The position numbers and the translations under genes were made by a program. A DNA stretch of 64,000 bases from Sulfobacillus thermosulfidooxidans (GTDB taxonomy: Bacteria > Bacillota > Sulfobacillia > Sulfobacillales > Sulfobacillaceae): positions 372,001-436,000 of the forward strand of contig NZ_LGRO01000002.1 in the NCBI RefSeq assembly GCF_001280565.1. The letters are read 5' to 3'. Under the pieces are notes generated by a model, which saw only the letters and a list, made by a program, of their open reading frames with translations, made no database searches and had not been told where the DNA came from. Below, piece after piece: positions 1 to 13,168 of the stretch. How positions within the stretch are numbered: the stretch's first letter is position 1; the number at the start of each line of letters is the position of its first letter.

Positions 1-381
1 CAACAGACCGCGAGTCGGCGTGGGAAGGGGCGGGGCCTGCCGGGCCCGACGTTCGATGAGACTGAGCACCAACGCGGCGAGCAAGAGCACATAACCTAAG
101 GCTTCTACCCGTTCCGGCTTTTGCACATAGAGCGCATCCACAAAGGCCGGGTCTTTTACAAAGCGAAAACGGTGTTCGATGACCGTTTGGCCTTTGTATT
201 CTTCGAGCAATCGGCGGGCATCAAAGGAGGAGGCCGGCAGATTGGTGATTAAGACAAACGTCGCCGCCCGGTCCTGTGCCGCCTGCACGCGTTGCGCATC
301 GACTGCCCCAATGGTGGGATGGACCCGGTATACTGTGGTGGTAGCCGGTTCGGGGGCATCGTGGCGGGGACGCCCGCGGGT
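1..381 (-). pseudogene. IS1634-type transposase, C-terminal fragment, split by IS21 element
   Basis: Read on the minus strand this stretch encodes an open frame with residues such as VIEHRFRFVKDP and KPERVEALGYVLLLAALVL, which are typical of the C-terminal part of IS1634-group (IS4 superfamily) DDE transposases. It has no start codon of its own. If the element at 382-3281 and one copy of the 5-bp duplication are removed, this frame joins in phase to the fragment ending near 3282, giving KRTTR followed by GRPRHDAPEP. It is therefore the severed 3' half of one gene. The frame stays open to the window edge at position 1, so its true end is not visible. Confidence 0.85.
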
Positions 382-535
382 TGTCAACGACAGGTTTAAA
401 ATCCCCAATAAGGACAATTCAATTTCCCCAAAAACGACAGTTGAATTTCCCCAAAACGCCAACGCAATTTCCCGCAAAACGGTAGGGTAAATTCCTCAAA
501 AACGACCGTTGAATTTCCTCATAATCGACAGGATT
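382..535. repeat. IS21 left end with multiple transposase-binding-type repeats
   Basis: A motif close to AATTTCCCCAAAAACGAC is repeated about five times with slight variation (TTCCCC, TTCCCG, TTCCTC forms) between the left tip and about 535. IS21-family ends usually carry several such repeats that bind IstA. The reverse-oriented counterpart is at 3165-3281. The spacing is irregular and there are no unique spacers, so this is not a CRISPR array. Confidence 0.8.
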
Positions 536-604
536 ATCGGGATGTTATGAGGAACGTATCAAAGGGCCTGTCCCTAGGGCGGGCACTATCCGAATACCGA
601 GGCG

Positions 605-1861
605 ATGCGAGACATGGCGTATTATCTATCCCCCGAGGAGTGTCGCAGGATCATGATGATGCACGAACAGAAGCAGACGATTACGGCGATTCAAGCGGCC
701 ACCGGTCGCGATCGCAAAACCATTCGTAAAGTGGTCACCGACCAAAAACACGGGCACGACCTGACCCGTCGTACCCGTGAGAGTAAACTCGATCCATACA
801 AAGAGTATATCGAAGAACGGTGGAACCAGGGGTGTCAGAATGCCGTTGTTCTCTGGGAAGAGGCCCGTGCCCACGGTTACACGGGCAGTCTGAGTTTGAT
901 CAAACAGCTGGTGCAACCGCTGCGTCCGCAGCGGGGTGTTGAACCGGCTCAACGCTATGAAACGGATCCCGGGGATCAAGCACAATGCGATTGGGCCGAC
1001 TTCGGGGCGTTGGTGTATCCGGACCAACGGCGAAAACTCTACATTTTTATTTATACCATGAGTTTTTCGCGGCGTATGTATGGCGAATTTGTGCACGATC
1101 AGCGCCAAACCACCTTGTTTCGCTGCCTCGAGAACGCGTTTGCGTATTTTGGCTGTGTCCCCACGACGATTTTATCAGATAACATGAAACCGATGGTCAT
1201 TGACCATCCGCGCGGGGGAGAGATCGTCTGGAACCCCCGATTCACGGCTTTTGCCGAATTTCATGGTTTTGGACCGAAAGCCGCCCGGCCTTATCGGGCA
1301 AAAACCAAGGGAAAAGTCGAACGCAGTGTGTTATATGTTCGCCAAAATTTCTGGCCGCGGATCCCTGAGGTCATCACCCTCAAGGAATTAAATGTCCGTG
1401 TCATGGTCTGGGCCCAGGAACGTGATCTGCGCATTCATGGCACCACGTTCGAGCGCCCGACAGATCGCTGGGAGGCCGACGTGGCGGGAGCCCAGCCGTA
1501 TGACCTGACGCGGCTGTGGGCCTTCGGCGAACAGTTTCCCCGTAAAGTGACGCGCGATGCGTTTGTGCACTGGCAAGGGCATCGTTTTGCGGTACCGTGG
1601 ACGGCGGCGGGAACGATGGTGTACGTCAGGCGCTACTCCGAGACCGGTATCGTGATTGGGCAAGAGACGCAAGAGCTCACGCGGTATGCGATTCCCTCGC
1701 GCCCGCATCAGATCGTCGGCACGGAGACATGGCACCAAGACGCCCCACCCGAACGCATTCCGGGTCAACCGATTGCTCGGCGTCGTACGTTACGGACACC
1801 CGAGGAGGATTTGCCCACGATCCGTTCATTAGCCGACTATGCGGAGGTGGTCCCGCAATGA
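605..1861 (+). CDS. istA: IS21-family transposase IstA
   Basis: This 418-aa DDE transposase catalyses cut-and-insert of the IS21 element together with the ATPase IstB. An N-terminal helix-turn-helix is visible around residues 10-45 (ITAIQAATGRDRKTIRKVV). The rve/DDE core follows, with QCDWADFG (first Asp), TILSDNMKP (second Asp) and YRAKTKGKVERSV (Glu). The length is normal for the family. The stop codon overlaps the istB start as ATGA at 1858-1861, so the two are translationally coupled. An in-frame ATG at 614 is an alternative start. The gene lies inside the 382-3281 element and shows no disruption. Confidence 0.93.
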   Translation: MRDMAYYLSPEECRRIMMMHEQKQTITAIQAATGRDRKTIRKVVTDQKHGHDLTRRTRESKLDPYKEYIEERWNQGCQNAVVLWEEARAHGYTGSLSLIKQLVQPLRPQRGVEPAQRYETDPGDQAQCDWADFGALVYPDQRRKLYIFIYTMSFSRRMYGEFVHDQRQTTLFRCLENAFAYFGCVPTTILSDNMKPMVIDHPRGGEIVWNPRFTAFAEFHGFGPKAARPYRAKTKGKVERSVLYVRQNFWPRIPEVITLKELNVRVMVWAQERDLRIHGTTFERPTDRWEADVAGAQPYDLTRLWAFGEQFPRKVTRDAFVHWQGHRFAVPWTAAGTMVYVRRYSETGIVIGQETQELTRYAIPSRPHQIVGTETWHQDAPPERIPGQPIARRRTLRTPEEDLPTIRSLADYAEVVPQ

Positions 1862-2694
1862 CCCGATCGACCCTGACGGTTCCGGTCGATCCTTGCGATG
1901 ACTTGGCCGCCCTCTGCGAACGCCTGAAACTTCCGGAAGTGGGCCGCCTCGCGGCTGCCCGCGCCCAGCAGGCCGCGGCAGAACAGTGGACGTATTCCCA
2001 ATACCTCATCGATGTGTTCCGGGCTGAAGTGGCCGCCCGCCAAGCCCGGTATGTCGTGTCGCATACGCAGATGTCACATCTGCCGTTTCACAAGACCTTA
2101 GACCAATATGATTTTACCTTCCAGCCGTCTCTGGATGAGCGCCAAGTGCGCCAGCTCCTGACGCTCCAATGGGTGGATGCGGCGGAAAATCTTATCGTGC
2201 TAGGCCCGCCCGGCGTGGGTAAAACACATTTGGTCGTGGCGATGGCGGGCCAAGCGATCGTGGAGCGTATCTCGGTGTATTTTATTACGATTCAGGACCT
2301 CGTGGCCGATTTGCGAAAAGCGTGGGACGAAAATCGCTTCGCGACCCGTCTCGGTATGTACGTGCGGCCCCGACTGCTTTGTATCGATGAAGTGGGCTAT
2401 TTGCCGCTCAGTTCCCTCGAAGCGAATTTGTTCTTTCGTCTGGTCGCCGCCCGCTATGAACGCGGCAGTCTGGCCCTCACCTCCAACAAAGGATTCGTCG
2501 ACTGGGGCCAGGTGTTTGGCGATCCGGTTCTGGCGACCGCTATTTTAGATAGGCTGGTGCACCATTCCACTATCCTGAACATTCGGGGGGATTCTTACCG
2601 TCTGCGTGAAAAGCGGACAGCCGGACTGCTAGGCGAGGCGGCCGCCCGGCCGTCGCTCGAAGCGTCCTTACCCGGCGGAACAGTGCCGTCATGA
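1858..2694 (+). CDS. istB: IS21-family helper ATPase IstB
   Basis: This 278-aa AAA+ ATPase assists IstA by forming a DnaA/DnaC-like assembly on target DNA. The Walker A motif GPPGVGKTH lies near residue 118 and the Walker B motif LLCIDEVGYLP near residue 180. The sensor-type segment ALTSNKGF follows, and the C-terminal RGDSYRLREK is typical of IstB. The frame stays open upstream to 1597, but the ATG at 1858 overlaps the istA stop as ATGA and gives the family length, so it was chosen. No damage is seen. Confidence 0.93.
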   Translation: MTRSTLTVPVDPCDDLAALCERLKLPEVGRLAAARAQQAAAEQWTYSQYLIDVFRAEVAARQARYVVSHTQMSHLPFHKTLDQYDFTFQPSLDERQVRQLLTLQWVDAAENLIVLGPPGVGKTHLVVAMAGQAIVERISVYFITIQDLVADLRKAWDENRFATRLGMYVRPRLLCIDEVGYLPLSSLEANLFFRLVAARYERGSLALTSNKGFVDWGQVFGDPVLATAILDRLVHHSTILNIRGDSYRLREKRTAGLLGEAAARPSLEASLPGGTVPS

Positions 2695-3118
2695 CACTAC
2701 GTGTCGCTTCAGGACCCCGAGCGAGGAGAAATTCATGGCCATTGGCCGATGGCGTGGCCACTGTGCCCAGTGGCTCGCGATGGTGACCGATTAGGGGCGC
2801 CCGCGGCATCTCTTGTTGGTGACTCGTCACGGGGCGTATGAACGACCCCGATCTTAGGGAAACAGATTGCCCAACACATTCCGACGATCGCGGTGAATTG
2901 AGCTGGAGTGGACCGAGCATTGACCCAGGGGCCCGCGCCACCACGCCTGCCGCACCGCCCCCAGCAAATGAGGTGGGCGGAAAGCGCCTACGACCGGATG
3001 GAATAGGCCACGAATCCGGCATATGGGGATTCCCCAGAGCGTACCCGCTTGTTCGGGCAGCGGAGATCTTAACGAGATGGCAAGGCATCCCCCCTTCGTA
3101 ACCCAACCCATCGCCGAC
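2695..3118. other. Non-coding tail of the IS21 element
   Basis: About 420 bp between istB and the right-end repeats. It is GC-rich. The short frames present on both strands show no recognisable domain or convincing ribosome binding site. It lies within the element, so it belongs to the transposon rather than to the host. Confidence 0.5.
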
Positions 3119-3149
3119 AAAATCCCCAGGAGCCATCCCTGGGGATTTT
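3119..3149. terminator. Hairpin terminator inside IS21 tail
   Basis: A 12-bp perfect stem, AAAATCCCCAGG at 3119-3130 with its complement at 3138-3149, and a 7-nt loop. The A/T ends make it usable in both directions. It would stop transcription leaving istB or entering the element from outside. Confidence 0.65.
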
Positions 3150-3164
3150 GATTTGCTTTGCTGT

Positions 3165-3281
3165 TGAGGAATTTACCTTGTCGTTTTTGGGGAATTAGCG
3201 CTGGCGTTTCTGGGGAATTTACCCTGCCGTTTTTGGCCTGTTTGAATTGTCGTTTTTGAGGAATTTAAATTGTCCTTGACA
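3165..3281. repeat. IS21 right end repeats
   Basis: Several copies of a GAGGAATTT / GGGGAATTT plus GTCGTTTTTG unit run in the opposite orientation to those at the left end. The outermost 40 bp (3242-3281) recur exactly at 4491-4530. Confidence 0.8.
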
Positions 3282-4399
3282 CGGGTCGTGCGTTTGGGGA
3301 CCTGCGTTTCCGCGACAACCGTCGCCTCGACATGATGCCATTGGGCGGTGGCCCGCCAAGCGGCCACGGCCTCTTCGGCATCATGAGCACAGGCAAACAC
3401 GGTTTCCGCGAGGCGAGTCGCCGCCCGGGTTAACTGGTTATGGGCCCGTTCGACCTGGCGGGCAATGGTGTGAGCTTTCCGCTCAGCTAGATGATCGGAG
3501 CGATAAACCACGAGCCGATAGGATCGGCCCTCAATTTCGCCGGTCTGTTCTGCGGCCGCGTAGGTGGCCGCATCGGCCCGCTCCCCGATTTTGCCGAGGG
3601 GAACCCAGGTGTTGGCCGCCAAGGCGGCCGTCTTCGCATCGTGCGCGGCTCGAAATGTTTCCGGACAACGCGAGAGAAAGCGGAGCGAACGGTCAGCCAT
3701 CGCCTTTAAGTTAGGACCCGTGATGAGGGCGGAATCGGCCACGTAGACCAGTTGTTGCAGTTGCTGAGGCGAAAAGTAATCGTCTAAGGCCGCAATCATC
3801 TCGGCATTGAGGATTTTGTCACTCAGATTCCCGTCTTGCACCGTGCCCACCACCGGAATGCCTTCTCGGGTCCCCAACAGCGTCAGGAGAATTTGACGCA
3901 GATCGGGACGATGATCCTTGGAATGGCCATAGGTGGGATGCACTCCGGTCCCGGATCCGGTGTCCGGATACGTGCCATAGACCGAGCGGGTCGTACTATC
4001 CCAGTGGACAAACACCGGACTATCGGGCGTCCACACGTGGTCGTGCAAGAGCGCTCGCGTTGCAACGGCACTGAAGACGGTGGCGCCACCGGCGGCAGCG
4101 ACTTTATCCAGAGCCCGTCCGAGGGCATCATCCGTAAAATCGGCCGCGGTGCGGCCGGATCCAAACAACAAGGGCACATCGGTTAACTGAAATTGCTCGT
4201 GGACGCGATACAGAGGTCGACGAGCGGTGAGCAAATTGACGACGAGCGCGAAAATCCGTTCGCCGGGCGACAGGTGGCAACGCTGCGAATCCCACGCAAC
4301 GGTCTGATTTATGGCCTCGATGAATCCAATTTCTTCACAGAGGGCTCGGATGACCGGTCCAGCCCCCACAACAACGGGTGTCGGCATGGGTGTGTTCAT
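3282..4399 (-). pseudogene. IS1634-type transposase, N-terminal fragment, split by IS21 element
   Basis: About 372 codons of an IS1634-group transposase. The N-terminal region (PVIRALCEEIGFIEAINQTV) matches the DUF4277-type start of these proteins. The DDE core includes VHWDSTTRSVYG, YGHSKDHRPDLRQ and YVADSALIT. The frame then enters the IS21 end and picks up about 36 nonsense residues before stopping at 3173. The missing C-terminal part lies at 1-381. The gene is dead as it stands, although precise loss of the IS21 element would restore it. An A-tract followed by a T-tract (about 4447-4465) precedes the start, probably within the transposon end. Confidence 0.88.
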
Positions 4400-4490
4400 A
4401 AGAGATTACTTCGCCATGCGATACACAATCTCCTTTGCGATCAGCCCAAAAAAAATAATTTTTTTGTTCCCGCCACGTGCGGAAAGTAAG

Positions 4491-4530
4491 TTGAATTGTC
4501 GTTTTTGAGGAATTTAAATTGTCCTTGACA
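4491..4530. repeat. Solo 40-bp IS21 right end
   Basis: These 40 bp are identical to 3242-3281, the right tip of the complete IS21 element, and end in the same CCTTGACA. No istA or istB copy adjoins them. The simplest reading is that the IS1634-type element landed 40 bp inside an older IS21 copy, with the rest of that copy beyond the left edge of the window. An unrelated end left by a deletion is the alternative. Confidence 0.75.
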
Positions 4531-4918
4531 ATACGTAGCATGTGGGCACACAAAGAGCCCCTGCGACGCGACCTTTCTAATGAGCATTTTATCATGCGGG
4601 CACAGTTTTACGAGAACTGTGCCATGGGGAAGAGTGCCATGAACTGTGTGGGGCCGAACCTGAACACCGAGGCAGTATATTCGAAGTCATGTCGGTCAAC
4701 GGCGGTATGACTACCAGCCCTGCTCTGAGTTGCCCAAACACGTGGGACATCTGCAACCGCGGCAACAAACAGGTTGCGTTGCTGTCACCAAGGATCGTTG
4801 GAACGGCGTTCATACGGCATATACGTTTGCAATCATTCTAGGCTATGCTATCGGGTGCCGCCAGGCAACCAGTTCGACCCGAGATGCATCTCGGGTCGAA
4901 AGTGTTCCCGACTCTCGA
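4531..4918. other. Intergenic region with two inverted repeats
   Basis: No convincing gene was found. A hairpin with a 9-bp stem (GGCACAGTT, 4599-4607 and 4615-4623) lies near the transposon junction. A perfect 28-bp palindrome spans 4873-4900, just downstream of the ATP-grasp gene. Neither is followed by a good T-run. Confidence 0.5.
4873..4900. repeat. Perfect 28-bp palindrome
   Basis: The half-site TTCGACCCGAGATG (4873-4886) is followed directly by its exact complement. It sits 18 bp past the stop of the last gene of the minus-strand cluster. It could form a stem at the mRNA 3' end, but the bases following on the minus strand are not T-rich, so a classical intrinsic terminator is doubtful. 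A protein-binding site is the alternative. Confidence 0.55.
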
Positions 4919-6220
4919 TTACTCCTCGTGGACGATCACTTCAATTTTCTCGCCAAAGGTTTTCTCGGCAACGTCCAGCGCTTTCGGTGTGGGGGCATCA
5001 AAAATATAGGAGCCAGCCCGGTCCGAAGACTGTGTAATTGGGCTCAGAGACTCGCCCCGCTGTTTGTCCATTACGATCTCGCGCAGTACAGGAACGAAAG
5101 CGGATGACGGACTCAATCGTGGGCGAGCACCACCGCTCCTATACCACGTGACCGGAATGGGTTCCCCCTGTACCCGCACATCCAACAGTTGCCCTCGACT
5201 GTGATTGAAGTAAACTTGGCGCGCAAACCGACTTGGCTCGGGGTAGGTGGTCGGTTCTCCTAATGCTATTCCGATTAGGGCATCTTCCATTGGAACCCCC
5301 GTGGTCAACTGGTATAGCGGTAGTATGCCGTCCCCGGGATTGCGTGCCGCAATCTCCATGAGAATCGGTCGGTTGCCTTTTGGCGAAACTTTATATTCGG
5401 CATGAGTTATACCATTTTGAAGAGCCAGGCGCTCGATCACCGCCGAATTTGTGCGTAGCAATCCTTGCTTCTTATCGGTCGACAAGCTAATCGCCGGGAC
5501 AGTATGCGCCATTTCGACAAAGAATTGACTCGAGTCGCTATTCGTTCGTTTCTGTGTGATTCCCGCGAAAATTATCCGTCCTCGCTGAACGAGTGTTTCC
5601 ACCGAAAACTCTGGCCCTTCGATGTTTTCTTCGAGTAGTAAGACTTCCCCAGCATCGTACACACTCGAGCTCAACACGCGTGTGAGCGTCTGGCCATCAT
5701 CAACGCGTTGGACCCCTGAACTAGCCTGCCGATTTAGGGGTTTTACCACCGCAGGGAATCGCTTCCAGTTCTCGCCGATATTCGATCGCATGTTCGGTGG
5801 GACTACGGAGAACTTTGGACTAAAATCGGATAGGTAGAGCCGTTGGAGAAATTTGTTGCGACAGACTTTTGCGGCACGCAGTCCCATATTGGGCAGACCC
5901 ATCCAGTCACCGACTCGTCCCACAGCCTCCACAAAGGCTTCACGAATGGTGTATAGCCCACGGATGTCGTACGTCTGGTGCCACTGTTGCACATGGCTCA
6001 GGATACCAATATGGTCCATGGGATCGGCAAACAGATAATCGGCAAAGCTTCGAAATGGATGCGCAGGGTTACTTTCCATGGCGTGGCTGTGGGCTAATGT
6101 TCTGGGATTCCTTTCGTCGATCACGAGCGGAGCAAGATCTCGGCGGATAATGGCATCAAGGAATTCAGGATATCGTCCACACGTAAACCCACCAAACAAA
6201 AGAAATGCCCTAGTCTTCAT
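4919..6220 (-). CDS. ATP-grasp ligase, L-amino-acid-ligase-like
   Basis: A 433-aa ATP-grasp enzyme that would join a carboxylate, as acyl phosphate, to an amine. The visible ATP-grasp features are RFPAVVKPLNRQASSG (phosphate loop and lysine), EENIEGPEFSVETL, and the metal-binding EIAARNPGDGI near residues 285-295. The N-terminus (FLLFGGFTCGRYPEFL) and overall size fit the BacD/L-amino-acid ligase group, so a dipeptide or amide bond is the likely product. The substrate cannot be read from sequence. Its start overlaps the upstream gene by 11 nt, and it is the last gene of the five-gene operon. Carboxylases of the same fold are a less likely alternative. Confidence 0.8.
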   Translation of the reverse strand: MKTRAFLLFGGFTCGRYPEFLDAIIRRDLAPLVIDERNPRTLAHSHAMESNPAHPFRSFADYLFADPMDHIGILSHVQQWHQTYDIRGLYTIREAFVEAVGRVGDWMGLPNMGLRAAKVCRNKFLQRLYLSDFSPKFSVVPPNMRSNIGENWKRFPAVVKPLNRQASSGVQRVDDGQTLTRVLSSSVYDAGEVLLLEENIEGPEFSVETLVQRGRIIFAGITQKRTNSDSSQFFVEMAHTVPAISLSTDKKQGLLRTNSAVIERLALQNGITHAEYKVSPKGNRPILMEIAARNPGDGILPLYQLTTGVPMEDALIGIALGEPTTYPEPSRFARQVYFNHSRGQLLDVRVQGEPIPVTWYRSGGARPRLSPSSAFVPVLREIVMDKQRGESLSPITQSSDRAGSYIFDAPTPKALDVAEKTFGEKIEVIVHEE

Positions 6221-7373
6221 TCAGGTGATCCCTCCATTCAGGATAAAACGTTGTGTAGGGCTCCTCGGCGATCTCGTCGAGTCGCATACGAATGTTCCTG
6301 CCGTGGTCGCCAACGCCTACCGCCAGGCAACCGGCAATATTTTTTTCTTGAAAAAACGCGGCGGTTTGACTATCGGTGGACATGATGTCTGAAGTTGGAA
6401 CCTGCGTGACCGCAAAAAAATCGGGTTCATAGAATGCAACATCGTTTTGGTAAAGAATCTCGGCGATGATGGAGTTCATGTCCTTCAGATAGCTGGCCAT
6501 CTTCTTTCCTCCCGTCATCATAGCGATACCAAACGCATAGGTCTGTGCGAAGTTCAAGTAATTGTGGCAGACGAACGATTGGTTGGGCAGCGCCAACCAG
6601 TCCACCTCTTCATCATGAAGCGGCGCCATCTCTCCGCCATCTGTTAGGGCCCTCAGAGCGGCAGTGTCGGGGCGCATGGAAACCTGCCGCAACTTTGCAA
6701 TCCACTTTCGGAAATCAGGGTCGCTGACGGCAAAACGATTCATTACGTCGATGGGAGCCTCGACGATCCCTTTGGGTTCGTGCAGGCCCGCGGCTCTTTC
6801 GATAGCGTTCCGATAAATCATGGCTCCGTAAGCATAATTCGTAGCATGGCTCGCAAGTTGCCATGCGTGGCGGTCGACGTCAAGAAGAGGATCCTGGAGG
6901 CCATTTTCATACGGAAACGGTTGAGAGAGCAATACCTTATGGCGGACGCTATGGCTTCGGGTGAACAGCACCGTTTGACTTACCTGTCCAGAAGGTGTGC
7001 GATGCCACCAAGCATATGGCTTATACTTAGCGTCCCCCAAGTTATTGTAGGTGACCAGCGTTCGCAGGTGCACTGCTCCAGGGTGCCATCGTTGGGCTAT
7101 AGCATGGACCCACGGGTGAGCAAAGTTCGGCGCAAAGATATTGGGGCTGGCGTGTGGCGAACTCTGAGATACGAAGGTTGATTCGATGAACCGCTGAAAC
7201 GCATCATCGTCCCAACCCACTAAGTCTCGAATTTCGCGCCGATCTTCCTTTGCTCCAGCAAAGACCTCGTGTTCATGTTCCCTTAAGAAATCACAAAACG
7301 CTTGGCGGCGGTCCTTGTAGGGTGTGGCGGATAACTCTAACACACCTAACAAGCGATCATTCAATGACTTCAT
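6210..7373 (-). CDS. Unrecognised 387-aa protein of the ATP-grasp/oxygenase cluster
   Basis: I do not recognise this family. The protein appears soluble, with no signal peptide or membrane span. It looks mainly helical and is rich in aromatic residues and histidine, for example FAHPWVHAIAQRW, RHAWQLASHATNY and FVCHNYLNFAQTYAFG. Scattered His, Glu and Asp residues could bind metal, but no known motif is clear. The start ATG overlaps the RraA-like stop (ATGA at 7373-7370) and its end overlaps the ATP-grasp start, so it is translated as part of the operon. A role in the same biosynthetic pathway is inferred from position only. Confidence 0.75.
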   Translation of the reverse strand: MKSLNDRLLGVLELSATPYKDRRQAFCDFLREHEHEVFAGAKEDRREIRDLVGWDDDAFQRFIESTFVSQSSPHASPNIFAPNFAHPWVHAIAQRWHPGAVHLRTLVTYNNLGDAKYKPYAWWHRTPSGQVSQTVLFTRSHSVRHKVLLSQPFPYENGLQDPLLDVDRHAWQLASHATNYAYGAMIYRNAIERAAGLHEPKGIVEAPIDVMNRFAVSDPDFRKWIAKLRQVSMRPDTAALRALTDGGEMAPLHDEEVDWLALPNQSFVCHNYLNFAQTYAFGIAMMTGGKKMASYLKDMNSIIAEILYQNDVAFYEPDFFAVTQVPTSDIMSTDSQTAAFFQEKNIAGCLAVGVGDHGRNIRMRLDEIAEEPYTTFYPEWRDHLNED

Positions 7374-7858
7374 TCCGCCGCATCCTTAACAGCCTGAGGT
7401 GTTAGCACGATGCCGTCGCGATCTGCGTATACCCAGTGATCTGGTGTCCATACAACCCCACCAAAGCGAAGGACCTCACCCAGTGCACCGTGGCCCTCTT
7501 TCCGGCTTCTCCGTGGGCAGCTTCCCATGGCCACGATACCGATGGGCACGTCCGCCAATTCCTCCACGTCGCGGACACACGCGTTCAACACGATACCGGC
7601 CACTCCCCGAGCGGCGGCCAAGCGTGCCAGATTGCCCCCAATCAGCGCGCAGCGGCGGGACCCACCTCCATCCACCACCAATACTGTGCCAGAGTCAGCC
7701 ACGTCGATGGCCTGCTTTACTAAAGTGTTGTCCTCGAAAACACGGATGGTCCGAATCCGGCCGTAAAACGTCGAAGATCCCCCAAACGAGACCAAGGTCA
7801 AATCGCAGACAGTCGCCAAATCAGGTTGAATATCACAAATATCGGCTGTATGAAGCAT
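7370..7858 (-). CDS. RraA-family protein (HMG/CHA aldolase-like)
   Basis: A 162-aa protein of the RraA fold. Characteristic stretches are VVDGGGSRRCALIGGNLA, GIVLNACVRDVEEL and the terminal DRDGIVLTP. The family includes 4-hydroxy-4-methyl-2-oxoglutarate/4-carboxy-4-hydroxy-2-oxoadipate aldolases, which also decarboxylate oxaloacetate, as well as RNase E inhibitors. The RDVE segment that supplies the catalytic Arg and metal-site Asp is present. In this operon an aldolase or decarboxylase acting on a 2-oxo acid seems likelier than RNase control, although an RNase E/G gene does lie elsewhere in the window. The gene overlaps the MFS gene upstream by 26 nt and the 387-aa gene downstream by 4 nt. 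Confidence 0.8.
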   Translation of the reverse strand: MLHTADICDIQPDLATVCDLTLVSFGGSSTFYGRIRTIRVFEDNTLVKQAIDVADSGTVLVVDGGGSRRCALIGGNLARLAAARGVAGIVLNACVRDVEELADVPIGIVAMGSCPRRSRKEGHGALGEVLRFGGVVWTPDHWVYADRDGIVLTPQAVKDAAE

Positions 7859-8969
7859 TTCTTCCCTCCTCAGAATTTTGGTGAATATAGATTGCTATAC
7901 CCGCTGCAACAATGGCAATCAAAAGTCCGATCCAGAGCAAGACCAGATGCAACCCAAGGGCGGCTATCGCCACTCCCATGAGTATACTGGCTATGGCTTT
8001 CCCGAGGTTTCGCATCACGAATCGCAGAGTGTACACTTGATTGCGATGCTCATCCATGACCTCAAGGTGCATCAAATGGTTTTGCGCGACCACCGATGCC
8101 CCGTCAGCCAGGGACGATACAAACAGAAAAGCGATGACGGCAACTAACGGGGACACAACATCGGCGGCCATGTAACAAAGGCCAAGAATCAACGTAGCTC
8201 CCAGCCACAATTGCAATCGACCTCGCCGCTCGCCATCCGCGAAACGCGAGCCGCGGAGGGTCGTAGAAGCGACTAGAATTCCTATGGACATCGCAAACTC
8301 GGTGAGGACGTAATACAAAGAATTCGCCGAGTGTTGGTGGATTAATACGACGAGCTGATTGTTAAACCCGATTTCCAGACCGAAGGCGATGGTGTTGAAC
8401 AAGATCAGCGATTTGAGGAGGCGACTCCCGGCCATCCACCGCCACCCCATAAGCAGTTCACGCCCGTACCGTCGCGCTTCCCGATGCAGGGACACTACAG
8501 GCACCTGTATAAATACCTCGATACAGGCACTCAGGAGAAAACTTATCGCGTCCATACCAAGTGCCCACTGTACCGAGTGAACGACTACTGAGAACCCAGC
8601 TAGCGCGAAGCCGATAACCATGCTCAAGGTATTAGCCGTCTGTAGATCAGCCGTCAGTCGCCCCAAATGGGAGCTCTGTGCGCTCAATCGCGGCACTAGC
8701 GTCTGGGCCATAGGCCGAGTGATGGCGCGAAATACTCCCAAGACAAATAACGGCGCCAGTACCCATGATGATCGCAACAGCGCAAAAACCATGAGCACCG
8801 TGACCATGCTAAGCAGGTCGGCCATAGCCATGGTCCAATTCGGACGGAAACGCCTCATAAACGGCATCACAAAATAGCCCGGAACAGCTCCGACGTATAT
8901 CGTTGCAAAAGTCAGAGCCAACCATAAACTGGAATGCCTTATAGAGAACACCGAAATGGCCAAGGCCAA
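7833..8969 (-). CDS. MFS transporter, probable exporter of the cluster product
   Basis: About 378 residues of a major facilitator superfamily permease with 10-12 hydrophobic spans (such as LLSMVTVLMVFALL and LILGLCYMAADVVSPLVAVIAFLFV). The TTG at 8969 used here would cut the first helix. The same frame upstream encodes LLLSSQLISGIGDQLLNLA, a typical MFS N-terminus, but contains no ATG, GTG or TTG before the stop at 9093-9095. An ATG at 9037, downstream of a GGAGGGGG sequence, lies one base out of frame. Either the gene has a one-base lesion or the start is unusual. An export role is inferred from the operon. Confidence 0.75.
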   Translation of the reverse strand: MALAISVFSIRHSSLWLALTFATIYVGAVPGYFVMPFMRRFRPNWTMAMADLLSMVTVLMVFALLRSSWVLAPLFVLGVFRAITRPMAQTLVPRLSAQSSHLGRLTADLQTANTLSMVIGFALAGFSVVVHSVQWALGMDAISFLLSACIEVFIQVPVVSLHREARRYGRELLMGWRWMAGSRLLKSLILFNTIAFGLEIGFNNQLVVLIHQHSANSLYYVLTEFAMSIGILVASTTLRGSRFADGERRGRLQLWLGATLILGLCYMAADVVSPLVAVIAFLFVSSLADGASVVAQNHLMHLEVMDEHRNQVYTLRFVMRNLGKAIASILMGVAIAALGLHLVLLWIGLLIAIVAAGIAIYIHQNSEEGRNASYSRYL

Positions 8970-9092
8970 GTTGAGTAACTGGTCACCAATCCCCGAAATT
9001 AATTGACTGGATAGTAACAGTCGGGCGCTTGTAGCATGTCGATCCGTACGGCCCCCTCCTTCGCATGATGATTCTCTGCGACCGGGGGTACC

Positions 9093-10091
9093 TTACACAA
9101 AGTAATCTTCTTCTAATAGGCTATCCATGGTCATCTGCATGTCGGGGGACAGGTGTATCCCGCACTTAATTCCCAGAACCGGAGAACCATTCCGCATCGT
9201 TCCCGGAAGAAAGCGATATGGTTCGAACGCCCCAAAAGCGGTATGCTCAGGATTTTGGCTCACGGCATTCGCAAAAATGGTGTGATCATCTCCCTGGATC
9301 CATATGCGGCGAAGAAGACGCGATCCGCCGTCATGGCTCGGAACATCTTCAATACCATCACGGCCATGAAGGACTCGATAATTGTCCAGAATGAGAATTT
9401 GTCCTTCACGAAGCTTGAGGCGAGTAGAATATCGAGGATTAACTAAGTAATCGGACTGCAACATCTGAACAGACACACTGGACCAGTGCTGCGTGTACAT
9501 CATGGAATCATAACGAAAACGCACGCGCGCGAGATGCTTGGACGTGCGTTCAAACACCGGGAAATCCATTGCCAATTGGTCATCTCGGCAAAACGACACA
9601 CTACCGCGGGTCATCAGAACCTTTGCGTGCCATCGTTCCATGAATAAGAGGTCGCGCAGGACTTTTTCCGTGTCCACAATGATGCTGGTTCCGCCCTGAT
9701 TGGCTTGGGTGACGCACTGCAACAAAATTAGCTTCGGTGGCCCAATCCTATAAAGTTTTCCTTCTACGCGAAGGAACCCGTGCAAATAAGATCCGTCCGT
9801 ATGGGGATTGAACTGGGAGGTGCTAGTTCCAATATATTCGGACTGGTCTCCAGACGGCCGAATGGCCGCTCCGGGCGTCACATCAACAATCCCGTCCTCG
9901 TTGGCTCGAATGTGACTCTGGCGGTTACCGAAATACGAGGCCAATTCTTTGAGGGTGTCGATTTTGGAGTCCCACGCATCAATAACACAAAACCCATCAG
10001 TTTCCAGCTTCTTGGCAATGAACCAAACATTTTTCTTTAACGCTTCTACCGACTCACATGCAATTGCGTTTTCGGTGATGATATCTTGCAT
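9093..10091 (-). CDS. TauD/TfdA-type 2-oxoglutarate-dependent Fe(II) oxygenase
   Basis: A 332-aa non-haem iron oxygenase. It would hydroxylate, desaturate or cyclise a small substrate with 2-oxoglutarate and O2. The metal facial triad is visible: His and Asp in NPHTDGSYL near residue 96, and the distal His in DNYRVLHGRDG near residue 243. The 2-oxoglutarate-binding Arg is probably within SRLLRRIWIQG. The upstream CVTQANQGGTSIIVD stretch resembles the gamma-butyrobetaine hydroxylase/TauD group. A GAGAGGGGAAG site precedes the ATG. It is the first gene of the five-gene cluster, so the promoter should lie in 10092-10400. Confidence 0.85.
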   Translation of the reverse strand: MQDIITENAIACESVEALKKNVWFIAKKLETDGFCVIDAWDSKIDTLKELASYFGNRQSHIRANEDGIVDVTPGAAIRPSGDQSEYIGTSTSQFNPHTDGSYLHGFLRVEGKLYRIGPPKLILLQCVTQANQGGTSIIVDTEKVLRDLLFMERWHAKVLMTRGSVSFCRDDQLAMDFPVFERTSKHLARVRFRYDSMMYTQHWSSVSVQMLQSDYLVNPRYSTRLKLREGQILILDNYRVLHGRDGIEDVPSHDGGSRLLRRIWIQGDDHTIFANAVSQNPEHTAFGAFEPYRFLPGTMRNGSPVLGIKCGIHLSPDMQMTMDSLLEEDYFV

Positions 10092-10410
10092 TACTTCCCC
10101 TCTCGGTTACATTTTCCACTCTTATTACTAAACTTAAAATTCGACTTTTGGGTAAAAATTCCTGCTCCAAACCCTAGACTTTCGGTCGCTCTTATTCGAC
10201 AATCTTCGAGACAGTATGTTCGGTCAGCATTTATGGGCCCGGAGACGGGTCGTCTGATCTGGTCGTACTTATGTAATTCAACGAATTTCCCCGTCAGCGA
10301 AATGTGGATAAAGTTTGACGCTTACGTATGTGTGGGATTAACGTATGACCTTGTATGGGGCTGGCCGATCTCCGTCGACGGGCGACGGGGATCGGCGCCC
10401 GTCCTCGACC
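10092..10410. other. Intergenic region between the oxygenase operon and the kinase remnant
   Basis: AT-rich near the oxygenase start and GC-rich towards the kinase remnant. It must hold the promoter of the minus-strand cluster, but no confident -35/-10 pair was found. No gene is supported. Confidence 0.5.
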
Positions 10411-11040
10411 GCGTTAACGCTGATCGAACAGGAACAGCAGCGTTTGGCCCGTGACTAGCACGATGGCCCCGTGCAATTACTCACTAACCTGAGCATGCGG
10501 CTTAGTATGATGAACCGCTTAGTGGCTGTCGATCCCGCATTAGCCCATGAGGAATGGGAACGGTTGAACGACCGCCTGCGGGAGGCCATCAATTTATTGC
10601 GGCAAGTGTTGTATGATTTGCAACCCATTGTGTTGGATGAGGCCGGATTGGCTGGCGGGATAGACCTGCTGGTCCGTCGCTGGACCGAGGAGACGGGTAT
10701 CGCCTGCACGTTGAACTGGCCGATTCCGGAAGCTGCCTGGCCGCTGTCCGCGGATGATAAGGTGGGTGTTTTTCGAATTTTACAAGAAGCGTTGGCCAAT
10801 ATTCACAAGCATGCTCAGGCGACCCATGTCACTCTGAGTGCCGAATTAACGTCCGAAGGCCTTGTCATCAAGCTTCGAGACAATGGCCGAGGGTTTGATC
10901 CAGCCGTTATGCATCCGGGGCATTATGGCTTGCATACGATGGCGCAGCGTGCAGCGTTGGTCGGGGCTTCGTGGCAGCTGGACACGGCCCCGGGAAAGGG
11001 CACGATCTGCCGTCTGCTGTGGGACCGGGCAGCGCTATGA
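10411..11040 (+). pseudogene. NarL-type sensor histidine kinase remnant, nonsense codon in H-box
   Basis: The frame reads EQEQQRLARD, then a TAG at 10456-10458, then HDGPVQLLTNLSMRL. This is the HisKA_3 H-box (usually RELHDG) with its Leu codon turned into a stop just before the phosphoacceptor His. The HATPase part is intact: EALANIHKHAQ (N-box), LRDNGRGFDP (G1) and GHYGLHTMAQRAALVG (G2). Sensor domains are missing upstream. A GTG at 10471 could restart translation after the stop, but that product would lack the His. The end overlaps the next gene as ATGA. Confidence 0.8.
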
Positions 11041-11720
11041 CTGCGGATGAGGCCATGGCCCGCGGTGACCAATGGTTTACGCATGGCTGGCTGGATGCGG
11101 CCCGCGAATGTTGGCAGCAGGTGGTAGCGATGGAGGGGGGAGCATTCCAACAGGCCGCAGCGTGGGATAATCTCGGCAAGGTCGCGGCTCGCCGGAGCCG
11201 GTGGGAGGATGCCGCCGATGAGTTTCGACGAGCATTGATCATCCTTCCCGGAGACGACACCGAAGGACGCATGCGCATTGCCATGCACCAGGCATTGGTT
11301 TGGACGCAAACGGGCCAAACCGATCTCGCGTATCGCCAATTATGGCAGCTCACGCACGAGGCGACGGCCGTATCTCCCCGCCTTCATACGCTGTTAGGAC
11401 TCAATCTTGCCGCGGTCCAAATTGATTATGATTATCCGCATCAAGCCATCGCCACTCTGCACGCGGTGGCGCAATACTGGACGCCGGAGGATGAGCAACG
11501 TTACGGGTATTTCTGGCATACCAATTTGGGCGTCTGCCATGTGGCCCTACATCAATGGGATGATGCAAGCTGCCATCTGAAGGCGGCTTTGGCCTGTGCA
11601 CCCACTCGTGATCGTCAGGGACCGGTTTTGGTCGAACGTGCGTTGGCAGCTTTTTATCGGGGGGAGGTTTTGGCTAGTCTTACGGATGCTCAACAAGATT
11701 ATGGCCTAAAATTGCTGTAA
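11037..11720 (+). pseudogene. TPR-repeat protein gene, probably truncated at its 3' end
   Basis: 227 residues made almost wholly of tetratricopeptide-like helical pairs, for example AAWDNLGKVAARRSRWEDAADEFRRAL and WHTNLGVCHVALHQWDDASCHLKAAL. Such proteins are scaffolds or regulators. The ATG overlaps the kinase stop by 4 nt, so the two once formed an operon. The stop codon TAA (11718-11720) lies inside the apparent left tip of the IS256-type element, so the original C-terminus was probably removed by that insertion. The base composition is richer in GC than in the neighbouring spo and ger genes. Confidence 0.65.
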
Positions 11721-13071
11721 AAAGCATTGAGCTTTCGCCTACGTAATCATCTGCTCGTTTTCATCATTTTCCGCAACTTTTGGTGGATATTCTTTCCTTA
11801 GCACCTGAATGGTTGCCCATTCATCCGCGTTAATTCCCACAACCCGCCCATGGTGGTGTGTGGCTCGAATGACAGTGCCGAAGATGCGCTTTCACGCACT
11901 CTTTTCCCTCCAAAATCGCGGAAGGATTTTAGTCCGGCGGCGTTCTTCCTCAAAACAGCGTTCGATACGATGCGTTGTCCGCACAATGATCCGATGTCGG
12001 ACAGGGACTTTGCAATGCGCGAGCAAAGCCTCGTGGTCTTCTGCCAGCGATTTGGCGGCGTGGGGAAGTTCTTGCGTTAAGCGCTTTTGTACTCGATGAG
12101 AGGCTTCCAATCCTGCTGCGTCATCCACCGCGTCACGGATCGTATAGAGTAGCTGTTTCACGTCGCCCTGAAAGGCTTCAGGCACTCGACTCAGCACATT
12201 GCGGGTTTTATGCGCCCCACACCGAATGCGTATCGCATTCGGCCATTGCCGTTCAATCGCCTTAATCACCCCTGGAGCGCCGTCGGAGGTAACCGTTAAG
12301 GGCGGTTCCAATCCCCGCCGCACTCAATCCCGCAAAAAGTCGCGCCAGGCTTCAAAGCTTTCGGCTTGACCCACACTCAAACTCAGCAAGACTTTCTGCC
12401 CATTTGGCTAAAACCGCTTCATCGGGGGATCCAGAGCGACGCATCGATTCGTACACAGCATCGAGAAATCAATAGAGAATGGGAATATGCGCAAGCGATC
12501 GGCGTTGAAAAGCTTCGTATTCAGACCACAAGGCATCGGTGACTTCACTGATCGCGGTGCGACTCCATAAGCGCTCTCCTGTTGACGTGGTCAAAGCCGC
12601 CTCGATGTCGCGCGTGGACAAACCCCGGGCAGTCCATCTCCACAGCCAGGCGGTCCACGGTTGGGGTTTCCGTTAACCCCTCTTGGATGGCGGAATGAAA
12701 GGGTTCTGGAGTATTCCGGACTGGGGGGACTGCGACGGAAATCTCCCCTTCTGCTGTTTTTATCCGGTGTGTCCGATAACCATTGCGGTATCCTTGGGCG
12801 CCATGGCGCCCATCCCGTTCATCATGCCCGCGTCCTGAGACATCGGTGACTTCTTGTTCTCATAATGCTTGCACCAGTCGTTGGGCCCCTCATCGTAATA
12901 GCTCGCGCGTCACATCTGTTGCATCCGGTGTCAGGCCCTCCGTAAGAAGTTGTGGAATGGCTTCTTGAATTCGTTGTGATGGGGGTATTCTAGACAGAGA
13001 GAGTTTGAGCCTCCTTAATAGGATGTTTCGTCACGGACTATTGTCGCTCAAGCTTTCGCAATTTTACAGCA
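11713..13071 (-). mobile_element. Degenerate IS256-family element
   Basis: Minus-strand fragments match an IS256 (mutator-type) transposase: GARGYRNG-type N-terminal text, LSTRDIEAALTTSTGERLWS, FLDAVYESMRRSG, the DDE-region VTSDGAPGVIKAIERQWP, and the C-terminal CFEEERRRTKILPRFWREKSA. They are broken by several stops and frameshifts. The longest intact piece is 11892-12323. The sequence TGCTGTAAAA at 11713-11722 and its complement at 13062-13071 are the likely terminal repeats. A matching 8-bp target duplication was not found. The element is dead. Confidence 0.8.
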
Positions 13072-13075
13072 GTTT

Positions 13076-13168
13076 TTAGACATCACTGTTTTGGCGATCA
13101 AATGTCCAAAAGAAGCCCAATCCCACAACCAAAGTCAGGGTATACATGGCTAAAGTCACGATGAGCAT
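13076..13168 (-). CDS. Possible 30-aa single-span membrane peptide
   Basis: The frame encodes a peptide starting MLIVTLAMYTLTLVVGLGFF and ending WTFDRQNSDV. It is one hydrophobic helix with a short charged tail. A purine-rich AGGGGGAAATGAA stretch precedes the ATG at a suitable distance. It sits between the IS256 remnant and fdhD. There is no homology evidence, so it may be a chance frame, although start, Shine-Dalgarno and composition are all consistent with a real small protein. Confidence 0.35.
   Translation of the reverse strand: MLIVTLAMYTLTLVVGLGFFWTFDRQNSDV

What the first reader, a model, noticed from the sequence alone, without database searches (positions are those of the whole stretch)
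4919..10091. Five-gene overlapping operon resembling an undescribed peptide-like metabolite pathway
Seen: oxygenase, MFS, RraA-like, 387-aa unknown and ATP-grasp genes on one strand, with stop/start overlaps of 26, 4 and 11 nt between the last four. Known: ATP-grasp L-amino-acid ligases with Fe(II)/2OG oxygenases and MFS exporters build and export modified dipeptides in other bacteria. Inference: a 2-oxo-acid-derived precursor is made or cleaved by the RraA-like enzyme, oxidised, joined by the ligase and exported. The combination with an RraA-like enzyme and the 387-aa protein is not one I recognise. The flanks are transposon debris, suggesting transfer.
Basis: partly seen in the sequence, partly recalled or inferred. 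Interest (0 to 1): 0.75.

Follow-up and report, generated by a model that had tools for sequence, protein, structure and literature searches.

The report
Mobile HvrJ–ATP-grasp metabolite gene cassette
Five overlapping genes, recently swapped between two distantly related bacterial genera, look like a compact pathway that builds and exports a small amide compound, and one of them is a non-phosphonate relative of an unexplained protein from the onion-rot toxin (pantaphos) pathway.

Summary
Five intact minus-strand genes (TauD-type oxygenase, MFS, RraA, 387-aa protein, ATP-grasp ligase) lie at 4919-10091, with overlaps of exactly 26, 4 and 11 nt.

(1) The 387-aa "unknown" is a full-length, distant homologue (24%, pairwise E 1e-17) of HvrJ, the protein of the Pantoea pantaphos phosphonate cluster whose function its discoverers could not predict. 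It sits there, as here, beside ATP-grasp and MFS genes.

(2) There is no PEP mutase here; the genome has only a methylisocitrate-lyase-type homologue. The product should not be a PepM-derived phosphonate, so HvrJ is separable from C-P chemistry.

(3) The operon is one 5.76-kb mobile block (4530-10287), 98% identical in DNA to a plasmid-like contig of another genus whose holA protein is only 38% identical, and absent from the other 152 genomes of the class searched. pN/pS is 0.30 and a compensated 3' hairpin is kept, so both copies look functional.

Best reading: an NRPS-independent amide pathway: RraA-type lyase and 2OG oxygenase make or tailor an oxo/polycarboxylic acid, the ATP-grasp ligase (with HvrJ) couples it to an amino acid, and the MFS exports it. 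Product unknown; interest moderate.

The parts
4530..10287 (-). mobile block carrying the whole operon; 98.06% identical over 5758 nt to L003 (another genus), no similarity beyond either edge
9093..10091 (-). TauD/TfdA-type Fe(II)/2-oxoglutarate oxygenase, 332 aa; HTD at 97-99, H242, RR 261-262
   Evidence: weak similarity to TmpA/TMLD/GBB dioxygenases and, at the C-terminus, arginine hydroxylases
7833..9038 (-). MFS transporter, about 390-400 aa; start codon uncertain (first listed in-frame start TTG 8969)
7370..7858 (-). RraA-like protein, 162 aa, with G75-X20-RD-X2-E metal/catalytic motif; nearest solved proteins 2pcn, 3c8o and 1j3l; the only RraA in the genome
6210..7373 (-). 387-aa HvrJ-family protein, no known domain
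4919..6220 (-). ATP-grasp carboxylate-amine ligase of L-amino-acid-ligase type, 433 aa
4873..4900 (-). 28-bp perfect palindrome 18 nt after the last stop codon; terminator-like hairpin without a U run; unique in the genome; L003 copy carries a compensating A-T to G-C change

Best explanation
The block is a compact, horizontally mobile, NRPS-independent biosynthetic operon for a small exported amide. Most likely steps: (i) the RraA-like enzyme, a metal-dependent pyruvate-enolate lyase/aldolase/decarboxylase, makes or trims a 2-oxo or hydroxy polycarboxylic acid (inferred); (ii) the TauD-type Fe(II)/2-oxoglutarate oxygenase hydroxylates, or otherwise oxidises, that acid or an amino acid (class of reaction inferred from family and residues); (iii) the ATP-grasp ligase activates a carboxylate as acyl phosphate and joins it to an amino acid (inferred from family); (iv) the HvrJ-family protein works with the ligation step, as a second tailoring or coupling enzyme or a partner of the ligase, because an HvrJ gene is found beside an ATP-grasp gene and an MFS gene both here and in the pantaphos cluster (inferred from context only); (v) the MFS protein exports the product. 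Shown: gene content, intact conserved frames, translational overlaps, HvrJ homology, absence of a PepM-type PEP mutase, and recent transfer between genera. Not shown: any substrate or the product.
For: Family assignments and active-site motifs. ATP-grasp relatives at 38-41% over full length in Streptomyces/Embleya, in metabolite-type gene clusters with an MFS gene adjacent or nearby (also Sulfuriferula at 31%). HvrJ homology: E 3e-10 against 72,556 plasmids, only HiVir-type clusters hit; shared PHASxNIF, AVHLR, PYAWW blocks. In Pantoea the gene directly follows the ATP-grasp and MFS genes, and PMC7858074 reports that HvrJ has no characterised homologue and suspects peptidic pantaphos derivatives because of the ATP-grasp proteins. 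RraA homologues with the metal-binding motifs likely act as class II pyruvate aldolases (PMC5065237). Precedent for 2OG oxygenase + ATP-grasp making a dicarboxylic acid-amino acid amide: E-64 (PMC12568646). Transfer and selection. PepM absent.
Against: No substrate is assigned for any enzyme. No second coupling enzyme, no self-resistance gene and no regulator is evident within the block. RraA proteins of some bacteria are RNase E regulators without lyase activity. The oxygenase is only distantly related to characterised enzymes, so its substrate cannot be read off. The MFS start codon is unclear. The HvrJ role rests on context in only two kinds of cluster.
Confidence: 0.55

Rival explanations
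1. It is a small catabolic or salvage operon: MFS uptake of a hydroxy/oxo acid or quaternary amine, oxidation by the TauD-type enzyme, cleavage by the RraA-like lyase, with the ATP-grasp protein as an accessory.
For: The RraA family includes the last enzyme of gallate/protocatechuate 4,5-cleavage (PMC5065237). The weak TauD matches are to the TmpA/trimethyllysine/butyrobetaine dioxygenases.
Against: No ring-cleavage or other catabolic enzyme is in the block. An L-amino-acid-ligase-type ATP-grasp gene and an HvrJ gene are typical of biosynthesis, and all Pantoea HvrJ hits inspected lie in HiVir-type clusters. The MFS matches a drug/H+ antiporter model (TIGR00900, below its cut-off).
Confidence: 0.15
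2. It is a degenerate or rearranged pantaphos-type (phosphonate) pathway that takes its phosphonate precursor from elsewhere in the genome or from the environment.
For: HvrJ, an ATP-grasp and an MFS gene are shared with the HiVir cluster.
Against: The only PEP-mutase-family protein in a 99.98% complete genome carries the lyase-type KKCGH site, not the EDK-X5-NS of PepM. The ATP-grasp is far closer to Streptomyces enzymes (about 40%) than to HvrH (21%), and the MFS shows no significant similarity to HvrI.
Confidence: 0.07
3. The product is a metal-binding or signalling amide rather than an antibiotic: polycarboxylate plus amino acid joined by ATP-grasp, exported to bind metals in acidic, metal-rich habitats.
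For: A polycarboxylate-forming lyase, an oxygenase, a ligase and an exporter would suit a chelator; L003 comes from a MAG labelled Solf, perhaps Solfatara.
Against: No uptake receptor or metal-responsive site was looked for or found in the block; no direct evidence.
Confidence: 0.15

Closest known systems
HiVir / hvr pantaphos cluster of Pantoea (HvrA-K)
   Same: HvrJ homologue, ATP-grasp gene, MFS gene, tightly packed one-strand operon; on plasmids in the P. agglomerans records seen here
   Different: no PepM, HvrB, HvrC, HvrDE, HvrF, HvrG or HvrK in the block; has a TauD oxygenase and an RraA protein instead; HvrJ only 24% identical; ATP-grasp and MFS not specifically HvrH/HvrI-like
ATP-grasp L-amino-acid ligase systems (bacilysin BacD/BacE, BL00235, dapdiamide DdaF)
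   Same: ATP-grasp ligase plus MFS; 2OG oxygenase also in dapdiamide (from memory)
   Different: none of the cluster partners recognised; RraA and HvrJ not part of these systems; similarity to BacD, BL00235 and DdaF is low
Streptomyces/Embleya/Sulfuriferula ATP-grasp clusters (H16, H18, H19, H22, H24)
   Same: ATP-grasp 31-41% identical over full length, MFS gene adjacent or nearby in the annotated ones
   Different: no TauD, RraA or HvrJ relative of this operon in the loci checked
E-64 pathway of fungi
   Same: logic: Fe(II)/2OG oxygenase makes a dicarboxylic acid, ATP-grasp joins it to an amino acid
   Different: unrelated ATP-grasp family, third coupling enzyme (ABS), no RraA or HvrJ

Membership tests
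Pantaphos-type phosphonate cluster (hvr) | PEP mutase (PepM/HvrA) | tested here: not met
   one PEP_mutase-family gene in the genome, with a lyase-type KKCGH site, unlinked on contig C1
Pantaphos-type phosphonate cluster (hvr) | HvrB-F orthologues (conserved in the hvr-like groups; one type replaces HvrDE by an aconitase, PMC7858074) | tested here: not met
   block holds only five genes, none of these families
Pantaphos-type phosphonate cluster (hvr) | HvrJ homologue beside ATP-grasp and MFS genes | tested here: met
HvrJ protein family | full-length sequence similarity incl. PHASxNIF, AVHLR, PYAWW blocks | tested here: met
   BLASTP E 1e-17; tblastn E 3e-10 over 87% of the query
ATP-grasp L-amino-acid ligase | ATP-grasp domain with LAL-type substrate region | tested here: met
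   PF13535 above cut-off; LMEIAARNPGDG region aligned to 3vot; LAL_C2 only sub-threshold
ATP-grasp L-amino-acid ligase | dipeptide-forming activity | not testable with these tools
   needs enzyme assay
RraA-type class II pyruvate aldolase/decarboxylase | G-X20-R-D-X2-E/D metal/catalytic motif (motif formula from memory of Mazurkewich 2014; PMC5065237 confirms that most homologues carry one of two such motifs) | tested here: met
   G75...RDVEE; aligned to 1j3l and 2pcn
Fe(II)/2OG TauD-type oxygenase | HxD/E...H triad and distal Arg | tested here: met
   H97-T-D99, H242, R261/262
Gallate/protocatechuate catabolic operon | ring-cleavage dioxygenase and hydratase genes with the aldolase | tested here: not met
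   none among the five genes of the block; not sought elsewhere in the genome

The most novel reading that the evidence does not exclude
A previously undescribed, mobile family of non-phosphonate metabolite clusters defined by an HvrJ-family enzyme that directly takes part in ATP-grasp-dependent amide formation, with an RraA-type aldolase used biosynthetically to build the polycarboxylate unit.
Probability: 0.25. Interest if true: 0.7.

Novelty: new variant of a known kind. Interest (0 to 1): 0.5.

Why it matters
HvrJ is the protein of the pantaphos toxin operon for which its discoverers could predict no function. A cluster that keeps HvrJ with an ATP-grasp ligase and an exporter, but has no phosphonate machinery, suggests that HvrJ belongs to the amide-forming or tailoring step rather than to C-P chemistry, and gives a five-gene system in which that can be tested. 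If RraA acts here as a biosynthetic aldolase, that would be an unusual use of a family known from catabolism and RNase regulation. The block also documents very recent gene transfer between genera whose HolA proteins are only 38% identical.

Tried and rejected
Structure of the 387-aa protein: AlphaFold2 with the two copies available gave mean pLDDT 36, so no fold search was run. Pfam, NCBIfam and PDB profile searches with HvrJ sequences found nothing. More HvrJ relatives: none in viral contigs, phages, 398 genomes of the phylum apart from its own or other plasmids; other phyla could not be searched because the tool only accepts centres with a genome handle. Considered and rejected: a PepM phosphonate cluster (no PepM), a catabolic operon (no catabolic partners). 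No paper in the held library combines RraA, ATP-grasp and biosynthetic gene cluster. The ATP-grasp resemblance to HvrH is general, not specific.

Full report
What is there. Five minus-strand genes occupy 4919-10091 exactly as described, with overlaps of 26, 4 and 11 nt. Pfam gives TauD, MFS_1, RraA-like and ATP-grasp_4 for four of them; the 387-aa protein matches no family and no solved structure. The oxygenase keeps the HTD...H...R residues, and the RraA protein keeps G-X20-R-D-X2-E. The ATP-grasp protein aligns to L-amino-acid ligase 3vot over residues 74-313.

The 387-aa protein is an HvrJ homologue. Against 72,556 plasmids it hits only seven Pantoea agglomerans plasmids from onion, with E-values from 2e-9 to 3e-10 over 87% of its length. 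Pairwise E is 1e-17, with shared PHASxNIF, AVHLR and PYAWW blocks. The Pantoea gene lies in an operon of PEP mutase, flavin monooxygenase, 2-isopropylmalate-synthase-like protein (read from its translation), dehydratase subunits, methyltransferase, GNAT, ATP-grasp, MFS, this gene, flavin reductase, which is the gene order of the HiVir/hvr operon, so it is HvrJ by position (gene table in PMC9933511). The pantaphos paper states that HvrJ has no characterised homologues and no predicted function, and suggests that ATP-grasp proteins make peptidic derivatives (PMC7858074).

It is not a PepM phosphonate pathway. The single PEP_mutase-family gene of the 99.98% complete genome has the KKCGH site of lyases, whereas the Pantoea HvrA has EDKTGLKKNS. 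The ATP-grasp protein is about 40% identical over full length to Streptomyces and Embleya enzymes, but only 21% to HvrH; in the annotated loci its relatives have an MFS gene adjacent or nearby. The MFS is not specifically HvrI-like. So only HvrJ ties the two clusters together, plus the general ligase and exporter logic.

Mobility. A 5758-nt stretch, 4530-10287, is 98.06% identical to L003, a contig of another genus in the same family; outside it the two share nothing. L003 carries a ParA-type ATPase, a MerR-type protein and an integrase, so it is probably a plasmid or integrative element (inferred). Between the same two genomes the holA protein is only 38% identical. The block is absent from seven congeners, from the rest of 154 genomes of the class, and from 397 other genomes drawn across the phylum. 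A congener with 95% identical holA aligns to the window only from 13089 onward in the stretch compared, so the first 13 kb of the window is variable, transposon-rich DNA. Copies of all five genes show pN/pS 0.22-0.46, pooled 0.30, with no broken frame.

Operon end. A 28-bp perfect palindrome, 4873-4900, follows the last stop codon. It is unique in the genome and folds as a strong hairpin (z -3.5). The L003 copy has a compensating A-T to G-C change. It may be a terminator, although no U run follows.

Mechanism. RraA homologues with the metal-binding motifs are likely class II pyruvate aldolases with oxaloacetate decarboxylase side activity (PMC5065237). Pairing a 2OG oxygenase with an ATP-grasp ligase has precedent in E-64, where a dicarboxylic acid is oxidised and then joined to an amino acid (PMC12568646). 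I therefore favour an exported amide of an oxidised oxo/polycarboxylic acid, with HvrJ assisting or completing the coupling. The steps are inferred from families; no substrate is known.

Limits. No usable fold was obtained for the 387-aa protein (pLDDT 36). Only two kinds of cluster with HvrJ were accessible, so the HvrJ-ATP-grasp link rests on few independent cases.

Noticed in passing
window 8960-9040: The MFS gene has no in-frame ATG/GTG at its natural N-terminus (LLLSSQLISGIGDQ); an ATG behind a strong ribosome-binding site lies in another frame. The same arrangement is in L003, so either an unusual start codon or a frameshift.
   Followed up: partly
window 4873-4900 and L003 about 10018-10045: 28-bp perfect palindrome behind the operon with a compensatory base-pair change between the two copies.
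   Followed up: yes
window 1-13088: Not conserved in the closest congener compared (G018); synteny starts at 13089. Holds IS21 IstA/IstB, a DUF4277 transposase, a Mutator fragment, and the C-terminal part of a histidine kinase (10471-11040).
   Followed up: partly
L012 (Sulfuriferula nivalis plasmid): Metabolite-type cluster with two ATP-grasp genes, argininosuccinate-lyase-like, PhzF, cysteine-synthase-like and MFS genes next to an acyl-homoserine-lactone synthase.
   Followed up: no
L009 (Streptomyces clavuligerus plasmid) 7409-12653: DUF3865, isochorismatase-like, arginase-like, ATP-grasp and MFS genes side by side, a possible small metabolite cluster.
   Followed up: no
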